Below, piece after piece: positions 5,090 to 45,534 of a DNA stretch of 46,503 nucleotides. Below the pieces are notes generated by a model, which had not been told where the DNA came from, made no database searches, and worked only from the letters and a program-made list of their open reading frames with translations. The stretch is from a virus: IMG/VR virus record IMGVR_UViG_3300037316_000092, positions 1 through 46,503 of that record; one strand, given 5' to 3'. Position 1 is the stretch's first letter. Each line of letters starts with the position of its first letter. The position numbers and the translations under genes were made by a program.

Positions 5090-7078
5090 TTATTTATTAT
5101 TCTTGAACATATAAATATATTCTTGTTTATCTGATTTTAACATATGATCTCTTTTTGACTTCAATGTAATTTTCTCCTGCACATCTCCAAAATACTCTTC
5201 GGATATTGTTATTATTTTGCCATATTTCTCTGATATATTTACTCCAAACCACTTGTCTTTTTTCAACATATATTTAACATTTTCCAGTGTTTTTCGCCAA
5301 TAGACATTATAAAAATAATCTTCGCCCTTTGAATATGCTTGTGAAAGCGCATTTGAATACACTTCCTGATCAAAATATGGCGGGCTTGACCAATATAAAT
5401 CAATAGAGTTTTCTTCACCTTTATAATACTCGGAACCCGTTTGTATTACTTTGCAGTCATTGAAATCAAAAAAACTAATCATTTCATTTAACTCATCCGC
5501 TGTTAATGGATCGGTTCCAATATATTTTCTTCCACAACTCATAGCACCAAGCAGTCTTCCACCAAATCCGGCAGAATAGTCACCAACAACATCATTAGGC
5601 TCCGAATACCGTAAGCATATATATTTTGCTATAACAGGCTTAAATATACTTATCTGTGAGGAAATCCAACCTTTTTTCATACCACTGATTATTGATTTAC
5701 AGCTAAAATTTAATTCTTCTGCTTTTGAACCGTGTAGTCCAAGCTTATTTTCTACCAACTTTGTTAATAATTGTTTATCCGAAAAAACCTCTACTATACT
5801 TGGCTTGTCCCTTGTCTTTGATTTGAAGTATGATCCGCAGAAATATTTACATATATAGTTGCCAATTCTTGAATGATTATCTAATATTGTATTTGTTATA
5901 TCTATATTTGTGTTTTTTATACTATCTAGTTCGTTATTTAGATTTTCAATATTATCTGGGTAAATAAATCCAATTTCCATAATTCTATTGACTATTGGCT
6001 CGATTATTTTCTTTCTGTCTTCAATAGAAAGTTTTGATAGATATTCTTTATCCATAGTCAAGTCGGGGCCGCAGTTATTTATTATAATTGGATTATCATA
6101 TTTTTGATTACTAAAAAGTTTTGGATGTCTTTTCATGTTTAATTCTTTAAGAAATTCAAATCTTTCAAATTTCCTATCCAAATAAATTGTAGCATTGTTA
6201 TATAGCAGCTCACAAACTTTATGAACCTTTAAATTGCCGCTGACAATAACCTCATATGTATTATTACCAGTTTCACTTATATAGTTTATTGTTAATGGCA
6301 AGTTGTATAAACGAAATTTTTTATTTATAATTGCGCATAATTCTATTGTTCCAACTATATTCCATCGATGTTCCAAAGATTTTTCATTCTTCTTAATACA
6401 GCCATCTCCGTCAAAAACTCCGCGAATAAAATGAAAATCTAATTTTTTGTCAAGCCAGTCGGGATATTGTATTTTGAAACTTTTTGCCTGCATACACCCC
6501 AGATTTGTAAGTTTTTCACAAAAATATACGCTATTTATACATACACCAGAGTTGTTATGTTCTGTTTTGCGTTCTTCATCATGAGTCGTTCTTGTTGTAA
6601 TTAATTTAGGATCATAAGAAAGAAACTTACAAAACTTTTTAATGTGGTCAATATCGTTTGATTTTAATCTCAAACTAAAAGATCCGTATTCTTCGCAATT
6701 ATAAGCATCTGCATACAAAAATCCAAGCCAATAAGCCTTTTCTTCTGTATCAATTTGATCAAATATGTGTTCATCAAAAAAATGCAACCTGTGTGAAGAG
6801 TTTTTGTCTCGTAAAATCCCTTCTTTCTGTGCCCACGCCTGAACTTTCTTTTTTCCTATATTGAATTTTATTCCGAGATTTTTGGCCGAAACTCCATCCC
6901 TATAAAGATCAATTATGCCGTCTATTTTATCTTCTGAAAAATCTTCATACTTAATTGAAAAATTATTATTTTTTACAATAGTTTTAGTGTCTACATATGA
7001 TTTTCCTATTTTTATAGCAATATCTCTCGTTGCAAAACCGTTTTCGATCAATTTTTTGATTTCTTCTAACTCTGACAT
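5090..7078 (-). CDS. LAGLIDADG homing endonuclease fused to DNA methyltransferase
   Basis: A 662-residue three-part protein. Residues 1-95 hold two HTH-like repeats (NGFATRDIAIKIGKSYV and DGVSAKNLGIKFNIGKKKV). Residues 110-310 form a two-motif LAGLIDADG endonuclease: YWLGFLYADAYN (116-127) and FIRGVFDGDGCI (217-228) carry the paired catalytic acids. Residues 400-662 form an amino-methyltransferase with the SAM loop DYSAGFGGRLLGA (500-512), GTDPL (521-525) and catalytic SPPY (565-568). It should cut a specific DNA site and methylate adenine or cytosine N4. It has its own TTGACA/TATATT promoter and an AAGGAGAG site, and sits between capsid and fibre genes, as expected of a homing insertion. Whether the methylase protects the cleavage site is unknown. 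Confidence 0.88.
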   Translation of the reverse strand: MSELEEIKKLIENGFATRDIAIKIGKSYVDTKTIVKNNNFSIKYEDFSEDKIDGIIDLYRDGVSAKNLGIKFNIGKKKVQAWAQKEGILRDKNSSHRLHFFDEHIFDQIDTEEKAYWLGFLYADAYNCEEYGSFSLRLKSNDIDHIKKFCKFLSYDPKLITTRTTHDEERKTEHNNSGVCINSVYFCEKLTNLGCMQAKSFKIQYPDWLDKKLDFHFIRGVFDGDGCIKKNEKSLEHRWNIVGTIELCAIINKKFRLYNLPLTINYISETGNNTYEVIVSGNLKVHKVCELLYNNATIYLDRKFERFEFLKELNMKRHPKLFSNQKYDNPIIINNCGPDLTMDKEYLSKLSIEDRKKIIEPIVNRIMEIGFIYPDNIENLNNELDSIKNTNIDITNTILDNHSRIGNYICKYFCGSYFKSKTRDKPSIVEVFSDKQLLTKLVENKLGLHGSKAEELNFSCKSIISGMKKGWISSQISIFKPVIAKYICLRYSEPNDVVGDYSAGFGGRLLGAMSCGRKYIGTDPLTADELNEMISFFDFNDCKVIQTGSEYYKGEENSIDLYWSSPPYFDQEVYSNALSQAYSKGEDYFYNVYWRKTLENVKYMLKKDKWFGVNISEKYGKIITISEEYFGDVQEKITLKSKRDHMLKSDKQEYIYMFKNNK

Positions 7079-32135: not shown

Positions 32136-32984
32136 TTATCCTGTTAATGCTACACTATTATGCTTTATTAATCCCTTATATTCTTCTATACTTATTGAAG
32201 GAACATTTAGTTTGGAGATTAGATCGTGATAGCATTGACCATATGCGCCTTTACAACAGTTACAGTTTGAACATAGTATTTGGTATTTGTCATTTTGTAA
32301 TTCGCTGTCTCTTATATATCTGTAAAATTTGTTAGCGTCATTTTTGAATTTTTTCTTATCCTCAAATCCATCATTATTTTTGTGATCTATCGTTAGAAAC
32401 ATATAATTATCTTCTCCACAACATTGACACGCGCCTCCGTATTTTTCTGTTATAGCCAATCTTAATCTTAATGTTTTTGCCTTATTCCACGATCTTCTTT
32501 GATCTAATGTTGCATATTTTTTTATTGCATCTTTGCCATTATTTCTTGTAATGCTTTTACCTAAAACACATTCTTTACATAAATCGATATTACATACTTT
32601 ATGAAAATTAAATTGATTCTCTAAATTAAGTTCTTTGCCGCATTTACATTGTTTTCCATTGCCATTTAAAAACTCGTGCTGACAAAATCCATTAAATCCT
32701 GTACAACAATTACAATTATAGCATAGCAACCTAAACTTATCTTTTGGGAATCCATTTGTTTTCAACCATTGATACACGTTTTTGCCGCCGCGACTATTTG
32801 TATTATCTTTATTTAATAACTTTCTATGCTCCCCGCCCCAATTTCCAGTATGATCTATAGTTAAAAATTGCCATGTTAATTCGCCACAACATTCGCATTT
32901 TTCGCCATATTCTTCTATTATGGTTGATTTTAGATTCAAAAGATGGGTTGCGCTATATATTGAGTATTTCGCCGGATCTTTTAT
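32136..32984 (-). pseudogene. HNH homing endonuclease, 3' part, cut by IS605 element
   Basis: The frame stays open upstream of the nominal TTG at 32939 and runs without a stop to the transposon edge at 32984. It reads IKDPAKYSIYSATHLLNLKS and on into the nuclease part. Two similar HNH/zinc units follow: CECCGELTWQFLTIDH with CYNCNCC, and CQCCGEDNYMFLTIDH with CSNCNCC. The LTIDH and CxxC patterns are those of phage HNH nucleases. Joined to the fragment at 34630-34770 it gives a continuous frame of about 329 codons. In its present state it lacks the natural start. A shortened product from the TTG is possible but unproven. Confidence 0.8.
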
Positions 32985-33002: not shown

Positions 33003-33023
33003 CCACCGCCCTTGTGGCGGTGG
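33003..33023. repeat. Left-end subterminal hairpin of IS605 element
   Basis: CCACCGCC and GGCGGTGG form a perfect eight-base stem around CTTGT. It is the likely TnpA recognition hairpin and is paralleled by the right-end hairpin, which has the same CTTGT loop. Confidence 0.85.
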
Positions 33024-33038
33024 ATGAATTGGCGACCG

Positions 33039-33443
33039 TTATTCGTGTAATTGTTGATCTTCAATATATTTCTTAACAGTATCTTCCGAAACATGCCCAA
33101 CAGCACCATAATAAGTGCTTCTTGACCATAGACCACTACCCCAGAACTTTTTTGTCTTCAACTTAGGAAAAGTGGTGAAGAGATAGACCGCACTAATAGA
33201 CTTAAGTGTTTTGGCAATCTCCACTGGTGCAGTCATATGATCTGTTCTAATGAACAAATGGACATGATCTGGCATAGTTTCCATCGTCTCTAATTTCCAG
33301 CCATATTCTTCGCAAGTTTCTGCCAGTATTTTCTTTAATTCTATCTCTACCGCATCCACTATCACCTTGTGTCGATATTTTGTGCAGAATATGATGTGAT
33401 AGGCAATTTCGTGAGTTGCATGGTTGTCGTTATATGTTTTCAC
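33039..33443 (-). CDS. tnpA: IS200/IS605 Y1 transposase TnpA
   Basis: The 134-residue HUH-family transposase begins with GTG. It carries the HUH pair His60-Val-His62 (MPDHVHLF) and the nucleophilic Tyr126 followed by Gln130 (KKYIEDQ), both in expected places; length matches the family. It excises and inserts single-stranded element DNA by recognising end hairpins. It diverges from tnpB across a 51-base promoter region. It could also mobilise the incomplete elements in this window in trans, although their hairpins differ. Confidence 0.95.
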   Translation of the reverse strand: MKTYNDNHATHEIAYHIIFCTKYRHKVIVDAVEIELKKILAETCEEYGWKLETMETMPDHVHLFIRTDHMTAPVEIAKTLKSISAVYLFTTFPKLKTKKFWGSGLWSRSTYYGAVGHVSEDTVKKYIEDQQLHE

Positions 33444-33458
33444 AATAGTCTCACTTTC

Positions 33459-33488
33459 TTGAAAAATCTTCTACTACAGTGATATATA
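33459..33488 (+). promoter_or_regulatory. Candidate tnpB promoter
   Basis: TTGAAA (33459-33464) and TATATA (33483-33488) are 18 bases apart, seven bases before the tnpB ATG at 33495. The second tnpB copy has the equivalent TTGACA/TATATA promoter. Confidence 0.5.
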
Positions 33489-33494
33489 ACAAGT

Positions 33495-34628
33495 ATGCAA
33501 CGAACCATAAGCTTAAAAATTGATTTGCCAGCAGAGTTTGCCGATTATTTGGAAACTTGTGCGACGATTTTTAATCGTTATGTTAGTTGGTGCTTTGATA
33601 ACAAGACTTATAATAAGTCGAAGGCTCATAAAGAACTGTATCAATTATTGAGAGTTGAATATCCAGAGATACCATCTGCTATTATTCAATCTATTCGTGA
33701 TACTGCTTTGGAAAGTGTTAAAGCTTTGAAATTCAAGTTTCGACCTTTCAAGAAACCAACTTCACATGTTCGTTATGATAAGAGAACAATTTCACTCAAA
33801 GGCGATAGGTTATCTATTGGCTGGTCTGGTAATCGTATCAAGCAGATAATCAAATTACCAAAGTTCTTTACGGAACGATATGGCGCTTGGAAGTTTCAAG
33901 CAGCCACTATCGGATATGATAAGTTTCGTAAATGTTTCAAGGCTAATTTGATTTTTGATGCTCCAACGCCTTTGGCGTTGGGCGATAAATCGGTTGGTGT
34001 GGATCGTGGTCTCTACAATATTGTGTCTCTATCTGATGGTTTTAGGTATGCTTCCAATCAGATTAGAAAAGTCAAAAGAGAAGTTCTCTTCTTGAAAAAG
34101 CAGCTCCAAACAAAAGGCACTCGTTCTGCTAAACGCAAACTGAAAAGTTTGAGCGGATACGAAAAGCGGTTCAGTTTGGATACTAATCACAAGATCGCAA
34201 AGCAGTTAGTTAGTATGCCGTATGATATTTTTGTTCTTGAAGACTTAAGAGGTATTCGAAAGCAAAAGTCAAAAGGTAAAGTATTGAACAAGTGGCTATC
34301 TAATTGGTCATTTTGGCAATTGGAACAATTACTTTCGTATAAGGCAGAAGCCGTTGGCAAACAAATTATCAAGGTAGATGCTCGATATACCAGTCAGAAA
34401 TGCTCTAACTGCGGAGAGATTGAAAAGAAAAATAGAAATGGATCGCATTACGCGTGCGATCGTTGTGGATACAGAGAGCATTCCGATGTGAATGCTGCTC
34501 GCAATATTCGCAATAACCTCATCTCTGCTGCTGCGAAAACGCAGAAGGTAGAGCAGGCTATGTGTCAATTAGCCGAATGTCTCGGAGAGCCAGAGACAAG
34601 CCACCAGCCTTGTGCTGGTGGTAATTGA
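33495..34628 (+). CDS. tnpB: TnpB RNA-guided nuclease (IS605 OrfB)
   Basis: The 377-residue TnpB has an N-terminal helical part and a RuvC core with Asp170 (SVGVDRG), Glu249 (FVLEDLRG) and Asp331 (HSDVNAARN). The four-Cys zinc finger (C303, C306, C321, C324) is intact. TnpB uses an RNA from the element's right end to cut DNA next to a short motif matching the insertion site, here probably TTTAT, so that excised sites are repaired from the occupied copy. The stop codon TGA lies at the last bases of the element. About two thirds of the first 74 residues match the second tnpB at the right edge of the window. Confidence 0.93.
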   Translation: MQRTISLKIDLPAEFADYLETCATIFNRYVSWCFDNKTYNKSKAHKELYQLLRVEYPEIPSAIIQSIRDTALESVKALKFKFRPFKKPTSHVRYDKRTISLKGDRLSIGWSGNRIKQIIKLPKFFTERYGAWKFQAATIGYDKFRKCFKANLIFDAPTPLALGDKSVGVDRGLYNIVSLSDGFRYASNQIRKVKREVLFLKKQLQTKGTRSAKRKLKSLSGYEKRFSLDTNHKIAKQLVSMPYDIFVLEDLRGIRKQKSKGKVLNKWLSNWSFWQLEQLLSYKAEAVGKQIIKVDARYTSQKCSNCGEIEKKNRNGSHYACDRCGYREHSDVNAARNIRNNLISAAAKTQKVEQAMCQLAECLGEPETSHQPCAGGN

Positions 34629-34650
34629 CTTCATCATGTCTTTTTTTCCT
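34480..34650 (+). ncRNA. Probable TnpB guide RNA (omega/reRNA)
   Basis: In this family the guide RNA overlaps the tnpB 3' end and right-end hairpin, and its guide reads into the flank. Here the hairpin at 34601-34621 precedes the element end (34629). The guide would be roughly the 15-20 bases from 34630, taken from the interrupted HNH gene. Limits are approximate and inferred from known systems. Confidence 0.5.
34601..34621. repeat. Right-end subterminal hairpin of IS605 element
   Basis: CCACCAGC and GCTGGTGG form a perfect stem around a CTTGT loop, mirroring the left-end hairpin in loop and stem length. Confidence 0.85.
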
Positions 34651-42254: not shown

Positions 42255-42713
42255 TTACGATAGCTCCGGATATAATTTGTATATTGTTGCTTTTGATGCA
42301 TCATCCAATGTTGAAAGTAGTGCTGAAACAAAATTCTTATCAGATGCTAATTTGCTTGGTAGAAATCGTTTTACCGTATCAATATCTTCTTTGGCTGACG
42401 CTATTTTAGTAATTGGATGACCTTTATAGAATACATTAATGCTATCTGAGGCAGCTGTTGTAAGTACCTCCCAATTAGTAGATGATGTTTTAATATCAGT
42501 TGTTTCTTCTATATTGTATCTAGCAACTATATAATCACCATCATCAGAGTTTTGTATTTCCCATAGTTCATCTGGTTTTCCATCATTCATACGAAAAACA
42601 TCAAATGCCACTTTTTCAAGCTTGTGTTTTACATCGGATAGCTTAAATACAACCTTTTCAGCATATTTAATTGAGTTAGATAGTTTGTCATAATCGATAG
42701 AAAAAGATTGCAT
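42255..42713 (-). CDS. Small protein of unknown function
   Basis: The start at 42713 (MQSFSIDYDKLSNSIKYAEK) has GGAGA five bases upstream. The 152-residue protein has a helix, then a beta segment DDGDYIVARYNIEETTDIKT and a helical C-terminus (STLDDASKATIYKLYPELS). It ends 10 bases before the 537-residue protein gene, with which it is probably co-translated. The family is not recognised. Confidence 0.6.
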   Translation of the reverse strand: MQSFSIDYDKLSNSIKYAEKVVFKLSDVKHKLEKVAFDVFRMNDGKPDELWEIQNSDDGDYIVARYNIEETTDIKTSSTNWEVLTTAASDSINVFYKGHPITKIASAKEDIDTVKRFLPSKLASDKNFVSALLSTLDDASKATIYKLYPELS

Positions 42714-42765
42714 ATATGTCTCCAAAACAAATAGAATACAAACTAATATCAAAATATGCCAAGAA

Positions 42766-43428
42766 TTATGATTGCTTTATTTTGATCCATCTTTCTTTTG
42801 CAGATTGAGACTGTTTGGCTTTTGTTTCAGGAGATAGCTTCTTTCTCTTTCCTTTATTGCCTCTTTTAGTAGTATCTATATTATTTCTTTTTAATATTCT
42901 ATATATTGCTGAACGATTAAGATCAAGTTTAGTTTCCATATCTCCAATAATTATACCATCTTTATATAATTTGATTACACTTTCTTCTTTATCTTGGTTG
43001 CGCTGTAGTTTTTGAACGACTTTTGCAATTGCTTCTGGCGTTCTTTTTCTACCGGTCATTTTTTTACTCATAGCGGATTTTGCTTCTTCTGTATGGTGGT
43101 CTCCTAATCTTGGATGTTCATTATTTGAATGCCACTCTTTCATCATCTCTGAATTTTTCTGTTTCCACTCTTCGGTATGAGGCTCTCGTTCTTTACCTTC
43201 CCACCATCCAGAAATTGGCGCCGCTTTTTGATCTCGTTGTTCTTGCGTCATTGCGGCATATTTTTTAATTTGGGTTTCGGAAATTTGTTTTTTAGTTTCT
43301 TCATGATGAGATCCGTGACTTCCTCCATCTTTAATATTATAACCAACACTTGGGTCTTTACTATTATATTTCCTCATATATTCTGTTTCAAGATCGTTAG
43401 CGGCAGCCACTCCTTTTGTTTCATCATC
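42766..43428 (-). pseudogene. GIY-YIG homing endonuclease, 3' part, cut by IsrB element
   Basis: The open frame continues upstream of the nominal GTG (43410) to the element edge. It reads DDETKGVAAANDLETEYMRK and continues KYNSKDPSVGYNIKDGGS, the end of a GIY-YIG catalytic domain. TGRKRTPEAIAK is a NUMOD3-type DNA-binding motif, and an HTH (IIIGDMETKLDLNRSAIYRI) and basic tail follow. The join with 44753-44968 restores the same frame. The catalytic N-terminus is now separate, so activity is presumably lost. Confidence 0.8.
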
Positions 43429-44488
43429 TTGTCGCAGGGATACCCTTGGCTTTAGCCAAGGGATGAACTGCGCTCCGTTTGTTGTAAGTTGTTGTGTATT
43501 TTCTTACATATAGCAAAACTATATCTGTTCTTTTACCATTTTGATTTATTCGTTTTCTAGTTTCTATATCGTGAATTGCAATTTTGCCTTTGCTACTTCC
43601 ACCAATATATGCTAACCGCTTCTTGTATTTTACCGTTGAGCCTCGTTGCAGGTCTAATGACACTGTTGTTCCATATGACTTTCGTTTGCCGCCCTTTGCA
43701 AAGTTTGCAACGTGTAATTGCCTTCGATGATATTCAAGAAACTGTATCTTATACATTCCAAGAAACGGCTTTACATTTGCTTTCAATACCATTTCTGCCA
43801 ACGAATGACTATCAACATTATGCGCTTCCCATATGTATTCGAGTTTTTCTTTTGACTTCTTGAAATCACGAATATCTCTATGAGCTTTTGTGTCGTAGCC
43901 TTTTGTTTTTACCAGTTCAACATTGAGTTTTTTTACTTCTGAATAAAACCAAATTTTGCCTACTTCTAATGGTGAAAACGATTTGTTCCATTTTGTTTTA
44001 CCTTCTTTTGTAATTGCAGATATATCTTCAACATTGATTACTGTTATCGGTAATATCTTTTGCAACTGTTTAATTATACGAAGTTTTGCGTTCCATCTTG
44101 CTTTTGTTGAAGGTGGAGCCCGATTAGCAGATCGTAATGTTGATCTATTAGATCGACACATACGATATGGTGTTTTTCTGCTTCGTCTTGATCTACGAAG
44201 TATTCTTCTTGTTTCTACGTGTGCCTTGACCCAGTTAGGTGTATTCGTTGTTATGTTTAATATGACGTGTTTTTCTGTTGCTGCTGTATAGCCTTCTCGT
44301 TCGCTCCCTGGATCGATACCTAATGCAACCTTTTGATATTTTCTGTTTGAAGGCTCTTTAACTAACTTAATACAGAAAATACCAGTTTGCCAATAAGCAA
44401 CTGCTTGACCCTTCTCCATTAATTTTCTTGCCCTCTTTTCAGAACAAGGCATTAAAGTAACTTTATTTATATCTAATACTGGAACCAC
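43424..44488 (-). CDS. IsrB-like RNA-guided nickase (HNH-less IscB family)
   Basis: The 354-residue protein has a PLMP-like start (VTLMPCSEKRARKLMEKG). RuvC-I Asp59 (ALGIDPGSE), an arginine-rich bridge helix (RRILRRSRRSRKTPYR, about 94-109), RuvC-II Glu154 (INVEDIS) and RuvC-III His223/Asp226 (HNVDSHSLAE) follow. Only about 70 residues separate RuvC-II and III, so the HNH domain of IscB is missing. This and the length fit IsrB, which nicks the non-target strand. The last codons and the TGA stop extend past the element edge into host sequence. It has no transposase of its own, so movement would need TnpA in trans. Confidence 0.88.
   Translation of the reverse strand: MVPVLDINKVTLMPCSEKRARKLMEKGQAVAYWQTGIFCIKLVKEPSNRKYQKVALGIDPGSEREGYTAATEKHVILNITTNTPNWVKAHVETRRILRRSRRSRKTPYRMCRSNRSTLRSANRAPPSTKARWNAKLRIIKQLQKILPITVINVEDISAITKEGKTKWNKSFSPLEVGKIWFYSEVKKLNVELVKTKGYDTKAHRDIRDFKKSKEKLEYIWEAHNVDSHSLAEMVLKANVKPFLGMYKIQFLEYHRRQLHVANFAKGGKRKSYGTTVSLDLQRGSTVKYKKRLAYIGGSSKGKIAIHDIETRKRINQNGKRTDIVLLYVRKYTTTYNKRSAVHPLAKAKGIPATR
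43443..43462. repeat. Right-end hairpin of the IsrB element
   Basis: CCCTTGGC and GCCAAGGG are a perfect eight-base stem with a four-base loop, 14 bases inside the element edge. The last part of isrB overlaps it. Confidence 0.8.
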
Positions 44489-44752
44489 AATTTACTCCTT
44501 TTTACTGCCCGAAAAATAATGCTTACGCACCTTTGTTCAACTCGCTTCGACATAGGCAGATCATAGAGGATAAAGACTAGCGAAACATCCTTATCGTATT
44601 GCTGACCCTTACCAAAACGGATCACAATCTGCTTATTTGATACTTGAAGTATTACCTTCTTATCTCCTTGTCTAGTCAATATCTTTTAGTCTTGTTGTTC
44701 CGAAACTGGTTAGATTTCGTATTCACAAGCCTCTGCCTTTAGGCAGAGGTTA
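44489..44752 (-). ncRNA. Probable IsrB omega RNA (guide RNA)
   Basis: IscB/IsrB guide RNAs lie upstream of the nuclease gene, with the guide at the 5' end read from the flank. Here 264 bases between the element edge and isrB are non-coding apart from a chance frame. They open with the strong hairpin at 44730-44749 and carry further stems, and the length is close to known IsrB RNAs. The guide would be the GIY-YIG gene sequence upstream (from 44753). Inferred from known systems. Confidence 0.65.
44730..44749. repeat. Left-end hairpin of the IsrB element
   Basis: CCTCTGCC and GGCAGAGG form a perfect stem with a four-base loop, only three bases inside the edge. It would be the first stem of the guide RNA scaffold. 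Confidence 0.82.
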
Positions 44753-44968
44753 TTGACCCAAATACTTATATTCGAAATTTTCTATTCCAAATTCTTGTAT
44801 GGCGGCATATATTTTAGGAGAATTAGCGTAAGCCTCTCCTTTCTTACCAGCCCGTTTTTCTAATTTTTCCTGTTTTGTTTGTCCAACATAAAACATACCG
44901 TTGATTTTGTTTGTTAGTAAATAAATTATGTATGTTATATTTTTGTCATTTTCGTTTTTGTTTGGCAT
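44753..44968 (-). pseudogene. GIY-YIG homing endonuclease, 5' part, cut by IsrB element
   Basis: This encodes the first 72 residues of the nuclease: ITYIIYLLTNKINGMFYVGQ carries the GIY-YIG motifs (YxxY then YVGQT), and YAAIQEFGIENFEYKYLG is the following helix. The stop at 44750 is created by the transposon. It has its own promoter (44990-45017) and an AAAGGA site seven bases before the ATG. Joined to the 3' part it would give 292 residues, a normal size for phage GIY-YIG homing nucleases. Confidence 0.82.
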
Positions 44969-45081: not shown

Positions 45082-45534
45082 TTATAGCCAGTTCTCGTCC
45101 CGAAGATCGGATATTTTTCGGAGAATTTCTTTAATACGTTCATCCTCCTCTATTATCTTCTTAATTTTTTTCTTGCTACCACCATATACTCTTCCATTAT
45201 TAGCGTAGTCCACATTACCGTGTAGCGATTTTGTTATTGAGCTTTGGTTCACATTTAACATCTTGGCTATTTCCATCTGTGTATAACCGTCTGCATATAA
45301 TCTAATAACTTGTCTCTGCCTGTCTGTTAATAATGTATCCACTATCCTCCAAAATTCTTTTTTAAGTTCATCCTCCAATATTGCAATCTCTTCATTATAA
45401 GAGAATGGGTTTAATCTTTTATATACACTTTCTTCATTTGAAAACGATTCGAGCATTTCTCCTGCAACAACTACCTCACAAAATACCTGCTGGTAGCTAT
45501 CTGAGCGCGTTCTTTTTCTCTCTTTTCGTTCCAT
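45082..45534 (-). CDS. Sigma-region-4-like HTH protein
   Basis: The 150-residue protein has a clear helix-turn-helix of the sigma region 4 type at about residues 68-108: LLTDRQRQVIRLYADGYTQM and then EIAKMLNVNQSSITKSLHGN. It lacks region 2, so it is not a complete sigma factor. It may act as a transcription regulator for late genes, or as a DNA-binding packaging protein. It starts behind AAGGAA. The following KKKIKKIIEEDERIKEIL is a basic/acidic helix. Confidence 0.75.
   Translation of the reverse strand: MERKERKRTRSDSYQQVFCEVVVAGEMLESFSNEESVYKRLNPFSYNEEIAILEDELKKEFWRIVDTLLTDRQRQVIRLYADGYTQMEIAKMLNVNQSSITKSLHGNVDYANNGRVYGGSKKKIKKIIEEDERIKEILRKISDLRDENWL

What the first reader, a model, noticed from the sequence alone, without database searches (positions are those of the whole stretch)
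42766..44968. IsrB-like RNA-guided element nested inside a GIY-YIG homing endonuclease gene
The two flanks of the 1324 bp element encode complementary halves of one GIY-YIG nuclease: catalytic N-terminus at 44753-44968, then domain end, NUMOD3 and HTH at 42766-43428. Removing 43429-44752 rejoins them exactly in frame. The guide RNA, as known for this family, would be read from the nuclease gene itself, so an IsrB nick would be directed at intact (empty) copies of a competing selfish gene. Seen: split gene, hairpins, HNH-less IscB motifs. Inferred: guide identity and biological effect.
Basis: partly seen in the sequence, partly recalled or inferred. Interest (0 to 1): 0.9.

Follow-up and report, generated by a model that had tools for sequence, protein, structure and literature searches.

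The report
IsrB element inside phage homing gene
In a fragment of a very large phage, a small RNA-guided DNA-nicking element (IsrB) has jumped into, and broken, another selfish gene (a GIY-YIG homing endonuclease), so its guide RNA is copied from that gene and should steer it to unbroken copies of the same allele; each part is known, but the nesting is unusual.

Summary
The finding is real, with corrected ends. A 1333-bp HEARO/IsrB element (43425-44757, minus strand) interrupts a GIY-YIG homing endonuclease gene. Eight distinct uninterrupted relatives lie beside the same sigma-like gene. Sibling copies in other huge phages begin with the same GTCAAT and end before ATGA. Rfam's HEARO model (omegaRNA) starts at 44757. 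The protein is IsrB: PDB 8dmb at E 1.2e-66, RuvC D59/E154/D226 kept, no HNH, TAM-reading Arg/Gln kept. The predicted guide is 44758-44777, not 44753-44772; the TAM is ATGA. No TnpA lies inside, but a Y1 TnpA in the same contig has matching right-end signals, and among ten records checked only IsrB-bearing ones have TnpA. Interpretation: guide source and the general retention/homing logic are supported. A specific attack on a competing selfish gene is not: the known intact copies differ from the guide at 5-10 of 20 positions, only one has the TAM, and most phage IsrB elements sit beside core genes. New member of a known kind in an unusual nested setting.

The parts
43425..44757 (-). IsrB/HEARO element, 1333 bp, first base G of GTCAATAACC to last base G of ...GACAAGATG
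   Evidence: Ends shared with sibling copies; HEARO model starts at 44757; corrected join aligns without gap to 8 orthologs
43424..44488 (-). IsrB ORF, GTG start, 354 aa; RuvC D59, E154, D226; no HNH; TGA stop spans the element end, its last base being the A of the flanking ATGA
   Evidence: Pfam RRXRR 127 bits; 8dmb DtIsrB E 2e-30 single, 1.2e-66 profile; catalytic residues invariant in 24 sequences
44535..44757 (-). omegaRNA scaffold (HEARO RF02033), full model 1-211; leader runs on to 44489
   Evidence: 33.9 bits, E 1.6e-5 to 6.3e-5, below Rfam's curated cut-off of 83; 12 pairs with two-sided changes in 5 sequences
44758..44777 (-). Predicted 20-nt guide TTTCGAATATAAGTATTTGG, from the GIY-YIG coding sequence
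   Evidence: Position by family layout (PMC9581776) and the corrected 5' end; expression not tested
43421..43424 (-). ATGA flank, predicted TAM
   Evidence: ATGA follows the window and sibling elements; DtIsrB TAM is NTGA (PMC9581776)
44758..44968 (-). N-terminal part of the GIY-YIG endonuclease gene, ATG at 44968
   Evidence: TIGR01453 E 9.4e-8, GIY-YIG E 3.2e-4; 8 orthologs
42766..43424 (-). C-terminal part of the GIY-YIG gene: conserved Glu (LETEYM), NUMOD3-like and HTH-like parts
   Evidence: Orthologs; weak NUMOD3 and HTH hits
44730..44749 (.). Terminal hairpin CCTCTGCC-TAAA-GGCAGAGG (transposition right end, ACAAG-hairpin-TTATTGAC)
   Evidence: z -4.7; three compensated pairs against siblings
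43443..43462 (.). Terminal hairpin CCCTTGGC-TAAA-GCCAAGGG (transposition left end), 18 nt from the TCAT/ATGA flank
   Evidence: z -4.2; 18-19 nt spacing also in siblings
33039..33443 (-). Y1 TnpA of the resident IS605-type element, candidate to move the IsrB element in trans
   Evidence: PF01797 128.6 bits; present only in IsrB-bearing records among 10 checked
33495..34628 (+). TnpB of the resident IS605-type element; its right end ACAAG-hairpin-TAATTGAC lies at 34596-34629
   Evidence: NF040570 173.7 bits; sequence
45082..45534 (-). Sigma-like gene upstream; marks the locus in relatives
42255..42752 (-). Conserved gene of unknown function downstream of the GIY-YIG gene; marks the locus

Best explanation
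An IsrB element of the HEARO type, ordinary for its family, inserted at a TCAT/ATGA site in the middle of a free-standing GIY-YIG homing endonuclease gene in a huge phage. Insertion separates the GIY-YIG motif from the conserved Glu and the DNA-binding parts, so the endonuclease is very probably dead. Transcription through the 5' half yields an omegaRNA whose first about 20 nt are that gene's own sequence. [quoted passage not shown] Movement itself is probably done in trans by the Y1 TnpA of the IS605-type element in the same contig. Shown here: element, ends, interrupted gene, intact relatives, conserved catalytic and TAM-reading residues, omegaRNA fold, TnpA in the same contig. Inferred: transcription, guide identity, nicking, copying, trans mobilisation.
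For: Eight distinct intact orthologs beside the same sigma-like gene, gap-free at the corrected junction. Three states at one locus: no GIY-YIG (sigma-to-566-aa gene gap about 520-560 bp in several relatives), GIY-YIG (1355-1404 bp), GIY-YIG plus IsrB (about 2750 bp). IsrB identity; TAM residues R323/Q326 of DtIsrB align to R313/Q316 (PMC9581776). HEARO match from the exact 5' end and in sibling L145. Sibling copies under purifying selection, dN/dS about 0.15-0.25. TnpA present only in IsrB-bearing records among ten; matching right-end signals. A related nuclease, TnpB, drives its element by cutting element-free plasmids (PMC11870625); a phage homing endonuclease that nicks its target hampers a co-infecting phage (PMC11620839).
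Against: No RNA or activity data. HEARO score is below the curated cut-off. No near-identical empty allele is known, so homing at this locus is unseen. The resident IS605 left-end flank (apparently TTAT) differs from the IsrB flank (TCAT), so its TnpA may not act on the IsrB left end. IsrB only nicks, so a strong drive is less certain than for TnpB. Window dN/dS against most siblings is saturated.
Confidence: 0.75

Rival explanations
1. The element is a passenger that merely landed in a dispensable gene: a real IsrB insertion, but with no present homing or drive at this site.
For: No predicted target among eight known intact copies; most phage IsrB elements lie beside other genes; decayed IsrB fragments exist in two relatives.
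Against: IsrB ORF intact with all catalytic and TAM-reading residues, omegaRNA intact.
Confidence: 0.3
2. The nesting is a directed hyperparasite: IsrB elements are selected to sit in homing endonucleases and overwrite them in co-infecting phages.
For: Window, plus sibling L145, which lies directly after a GIY-YIG gene (TIGR01453 88 bits) and before an HNH-like ORF.
Against: Only 2 of about 32 phage loci; most others adjoin terminase, portal, polymerase and similar genes.
Confidence: 0.08
3. The element is spliced from RNA (IStron or intron-like), so the endonuclease is still made.
For: The flanks rejoin exactly in frame.
Against: No group I or II intron model matches 43350-44800; only HEARO and a weak chance hit. 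IS200/IS605 insertion leaves an exact join without splicing.
Confidence: 0.03
4. Chance adjacency of two unrelated ORFs, or assembly error.
For: Only one contig shows this junction.
Against: Eight uninterrupted orthologs at the same locus and family-typical ends on both sides.
Confidence: 0.01

Closest known systems
IsrB (Desulfovirgula thermocuniculi IsrB, PDB 8dmb)
   Same: About 350 aa, PLMP, RuvC triad, arginine-rich bridge, no HNH, 5' omegaRNA, NTGA-type TAM, Arg/Gln TAM readers
   Different: Low sequence identity; shorter HEARO-like omegaRNA; lies in a phage, inside a homing endonuclease gene; activity untested
HEARO RNA and ORF (Rfam RF02033)
   Same: RNA starts at the first base of the element and precedes the ORF; flank is ATGA
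   Different: Score below curated cut-off; associated protein lacks HNH
TnpB gene drive of IS200/IS605 in plasmids (PMC11870625)
   Same: Guide records the insertion site, element-free copies are the target
   Different: TnpB makes a double-strand cut with a 3' guide; IsrB nicks with a 5' guide; here it is inference only
Phage homing endonucleases and interference competition (gp210 of PhiPA3, PMC11620839)
   Same: Selfish nucleases competing in co-infected cells; gp210 nicks
   Different: Protein-guided, intron-encoded; here the homing gene is the victim and the invader is RNA-guided
IStrons (PMC4227781)
   Same: IS200/IS605-type element nested in a gene
   Different: No intron found here, so the gene is not rescued

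Membership tests
IsrB | Homology to IsrB over PLMP, RuvC and TAM-interacting parts | tested here: met
   8dmb E 1.2e-66 over profile 2-323 of 340
IsrB | RuvC catalytic D-E-D kept | tested here: met
   D59, E154, D226 invariant in 24 sequences
IsrB | No HNH domain, about 350 aa | tested here: met
   354 aa, only RRXRR in Pfam; NCBIfam IscB model covers only 4-157 and misses its cut-off
IsrB | omegaRNA directly upstream | tested here: met
   HEARO 1-211 at 44535-44757, below curated cut-off; covarying fold
IsrB | NTGA TAM at the empty site | tested here: met
   ATGA at 43421-43424 and in siblings; readout by assay not tested
IsrB | RNA-guided nicking | not testable with these tools
   Needs biochemistry
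IS200/IS605 superfamily | Subterminal hairpins, no target duplication, exact join | tested here: met
IS200/IS605 superfamily | Own Y1 TnpA inside the element | tested here: not met
   Only IsrB between the ends; a TnpA lies elsewhere in the contig, so the element is non-autonomous
GIY-YIG homing endonuclease | GIY-YIG fold motifs and Glu, NUMOD3/HTH tail | tested here: met
   TIGR01453 on both halves; conserved columns
GIY-YIG homing endonuclease | Present or absent at a fixed site in close relatives | tested here: met
   Gap sizes; orthologs
GIY-YIG homing endonuclease | Site-specific cleavage leading to homing | not testable with these tools
   Needs an assay
IStron | Group I intron within the element | tested here: not met
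   No intron model matches

The most novel reading that the evidence does not exclude
An RNA-guided nickase preys on a homing endonuclease: in mixed infection the IsrB-carrying allele converts intact GIY-YIG alleles of close relatives, killing the endonuclease and replacing one drive with another at a hotspot that already holds several kinds of homing genes.
Probability: 0.25. Interest if true: 0.75.

Novelty: new member of a known kind. Interest (0 to 1): 0.5.

Why it matters
It is a clean natural case, with exact ends and eight uninterrupted relatives, of one selfish nuclease system nested in another. The locus shows three states (no homing gene, homing gene, homing gene plus IsrB). That makes a direct test possible of whether an HNH-less nickase such as IsrB can drive its own spread or only hold its place. 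The siblings suggest where such elements can live without harm: exactly at ATGA start codons, or inside dispensable genes.

Tried and rejected
Single-protein scans of viral contigs with the IsrB or the C-terminal half found nothing; alignments were needed. An intron or IStron was rejected. A preference for homing genes was looked for and not found. A guide match to known intact alleles was looked for and not found. Pairing of left-end guide bases with TCAT, by analogy with IS608, could not be made convincing and is not claimed. Decayed fragments in G009 and G020 did not help to define the ends. The automated end finder worked on only 32 of 86 loci, so its start-codon count is a rough figure. 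Structure prediction was not run, because the sequence match to 8dmb was already strong. The original papers on HEARO, ISC elements and OMEGA (Weinberg 2009; PMC4810608; PMC8929163) are not held, so their statements could not be checked.

Full report
What the window is. The window is a virus record. Its terminase has 65-82% identical relatives in contigs of up to 428 kb, so it is probably a fragment of a huge phage.

The interrupted gene. The two flanks encode the N and C parts of a GIY-YIG endonuclease. Uninterrupted genes lie at the same place, next to the sigma-like gene matching 45082-45534, in L105, L106, L107, L257, L258, L260 (same gene as L259), L261 and L271: eight distinct genes, 38-45% identical to the joined protein. 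In other relatives the gene is absent: the distance from the sigma-like gene to the 566-aa gene is about 520-560 bp, against 1355-1404 bp with the GIY-YIG gene and about 2750 bp in the window. This presence and absence fits a free-standing homing gene. The locus is a hotspot: a LAGLIDADG gene (L128, PF14528 37.4 bits) and a DUF723-type gene (L130) adjoin the sigma-like gene in two other relatives.

The exact ends. Four sibling copies in contig 3300023213_000432 all start GTCAATAACC and all end before ATGA; L254 from a 394-kb contig, L250 and L246 agree at the ends that could be read. Applied to the window this gives 43425-44757. Rfam's HEARO model, which begins GUCAA, starts at 44757. Both cuts keep the frame because they differ by nine bases.

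The protein. The ORF 43424-44488 matches RRXRR, and DtIsrB is its best solved relative: E 2e-30 with the single sequence and 1.2e-66 with a 24-sequence profile. D59, E154 and D226 are invariant. DtIsrB reads the TAM with R323 and Q326 (PMC9581776); they align with R313 and Q316 of the window (chain numbering offset 150, which also places R100 and R104 on arginines). There is no HNH domain. Sibling copies have dN/dS of about 0.15-0.25, which is purifying selection.

The RNA. HEARO covers 44535-44757 in full, at 33.9 bits, below Rfam's cut-off of 83. The five-sequence alignment folds into a consensus with 12 pairs changed on both sides and kept, including three in the terminal hairpin. By the family layout the guide is the 20 nt before the scaffold, 44758-44777, TTTCGAATATAAGTATTTGG, and the empty site carries ATGA next to it. 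[quoted passage not shown]

Mobility. No transposase lies in the element. The contig carries an IS605-type element with Y1 TnpA (33039-33443) and TnpB (33495-34628). Its right end, ACAAG-hairpin-TAATTGAC, matches that of the IsrB element, ACAAG-hairpin-TTATTGAC; both left ends have a hairpin followed by ATGAA inside a longer stem. Among ten records checked, TnpA was found only in the window and in the two assemblies of the IsrB-rich phage. Trans mobilisation is therefore likely, though the left flank (TCAT here, apparently TTAT for the IS605 element) differs.

What it probably does. The insertion cuts the GIY-YIG motif from the conserved Glu and from the DNA-binding tail, so the endonuclease is probably inactive. 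The guide points at the uninterrupted allele. A nick there, followed by repair from the filled copy, would restore or spread the element; this is the known logic of such elements, shown for TnpB in plasmids (PMC11870625). For IsrB, which only nicks, it is inference. That a nicking homing endonuclease can harm a co-infecting phage has been shown for gp210 (PMC11620839).

The eight known intact genes differ from the guide at 5 to 10 of 20 positions, and only L106 has NTGA there: none is a predicted target. Of about 31 other phage IsrB loci, most lie beside terminase, portal, polymerase, helicase and other genes. Sibling L145 alone also touches a GIY-YIG gene. So nesting in a homing gene is not a rule.

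A side result. Many of these elements sit exactly before an ATGA or GTGA start codon. The automated count gives 17 of 32 located ends opening an ORF of at least 60 codons, against 25% of all ATGA/GTGA in the same loci. In the closest subfamily L142, L143, L145, L246, L250 and L254 do so. The IsrB stop codon then overlaps the next start codon in L142, L143, L145 and others, which would allow translational coupling. The window is an exception: mid-gene, but in a dispensable gene. That HEARO elements precede ATGA or GTGA I recall from the original description; I could not check it here.

Verdict.

Noticed in passing
L142, L143, L145, L246, L250, L254 and other IsrB loci: IsrB elements often sit exactly before an ATGA/GTGA start codon (17 of 32 located ends open an ORF of at least 60 codons, control 25%); the IsrB stop codon can overlap the downstream start.
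   Followed up: partly
L246 (from base 993): An element with both ends and a full omegaRNA but only a remnant of isrB: a possible non-autonomous derivative served by IsrB in trans.
   Followed up: partly
contig 3300023213_000432 (L142, L143, L145, L147, L250, L246): One huge-phage contig carries at least five isrB copies and one isrB-less derivative, 82-89% identical to each other, plus a TnpA/TnpB element.
   Followed up: partly
intergenic site after the sigma-like gene; L128 545-1528, L130 201-1505: Different homing-type genes (GIY-YIG, LAGLIDADG, DUF723) occupy the same neighbourhood in different relatives: a homing-gene hotspot.
   Followed up: partly
window 33003-34629: IS605-type element with divergent tnpA and tnpB among structural genes, next to a Cys/His-rich HNH-like ORF (32136-32939) without a Pfam hit.
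   Followed up: partly
window 43424-43426: The isrB stop codon TGA is completed by the A of the target-site ATGA, outside the element.
   Followed up: yes
L136 1501-1728; L137 and L138 (G020): Decayed isrB fragments in two relatives, one 82% identical over 76 residues: past invasions and loss.
   Followed up: partly
window 5090-7078: 662-aa ORF with a homing-type N-terminal part by eye and a weak N6_N4 methylase match at its end; perhaps a fusion or an interrupted methylase.
   Followed up: no
L254, element end before a start codon: In a 394-kb phage the element sits at the start codon of a long gene that resembles rIIA by eye.
   Followed up: no
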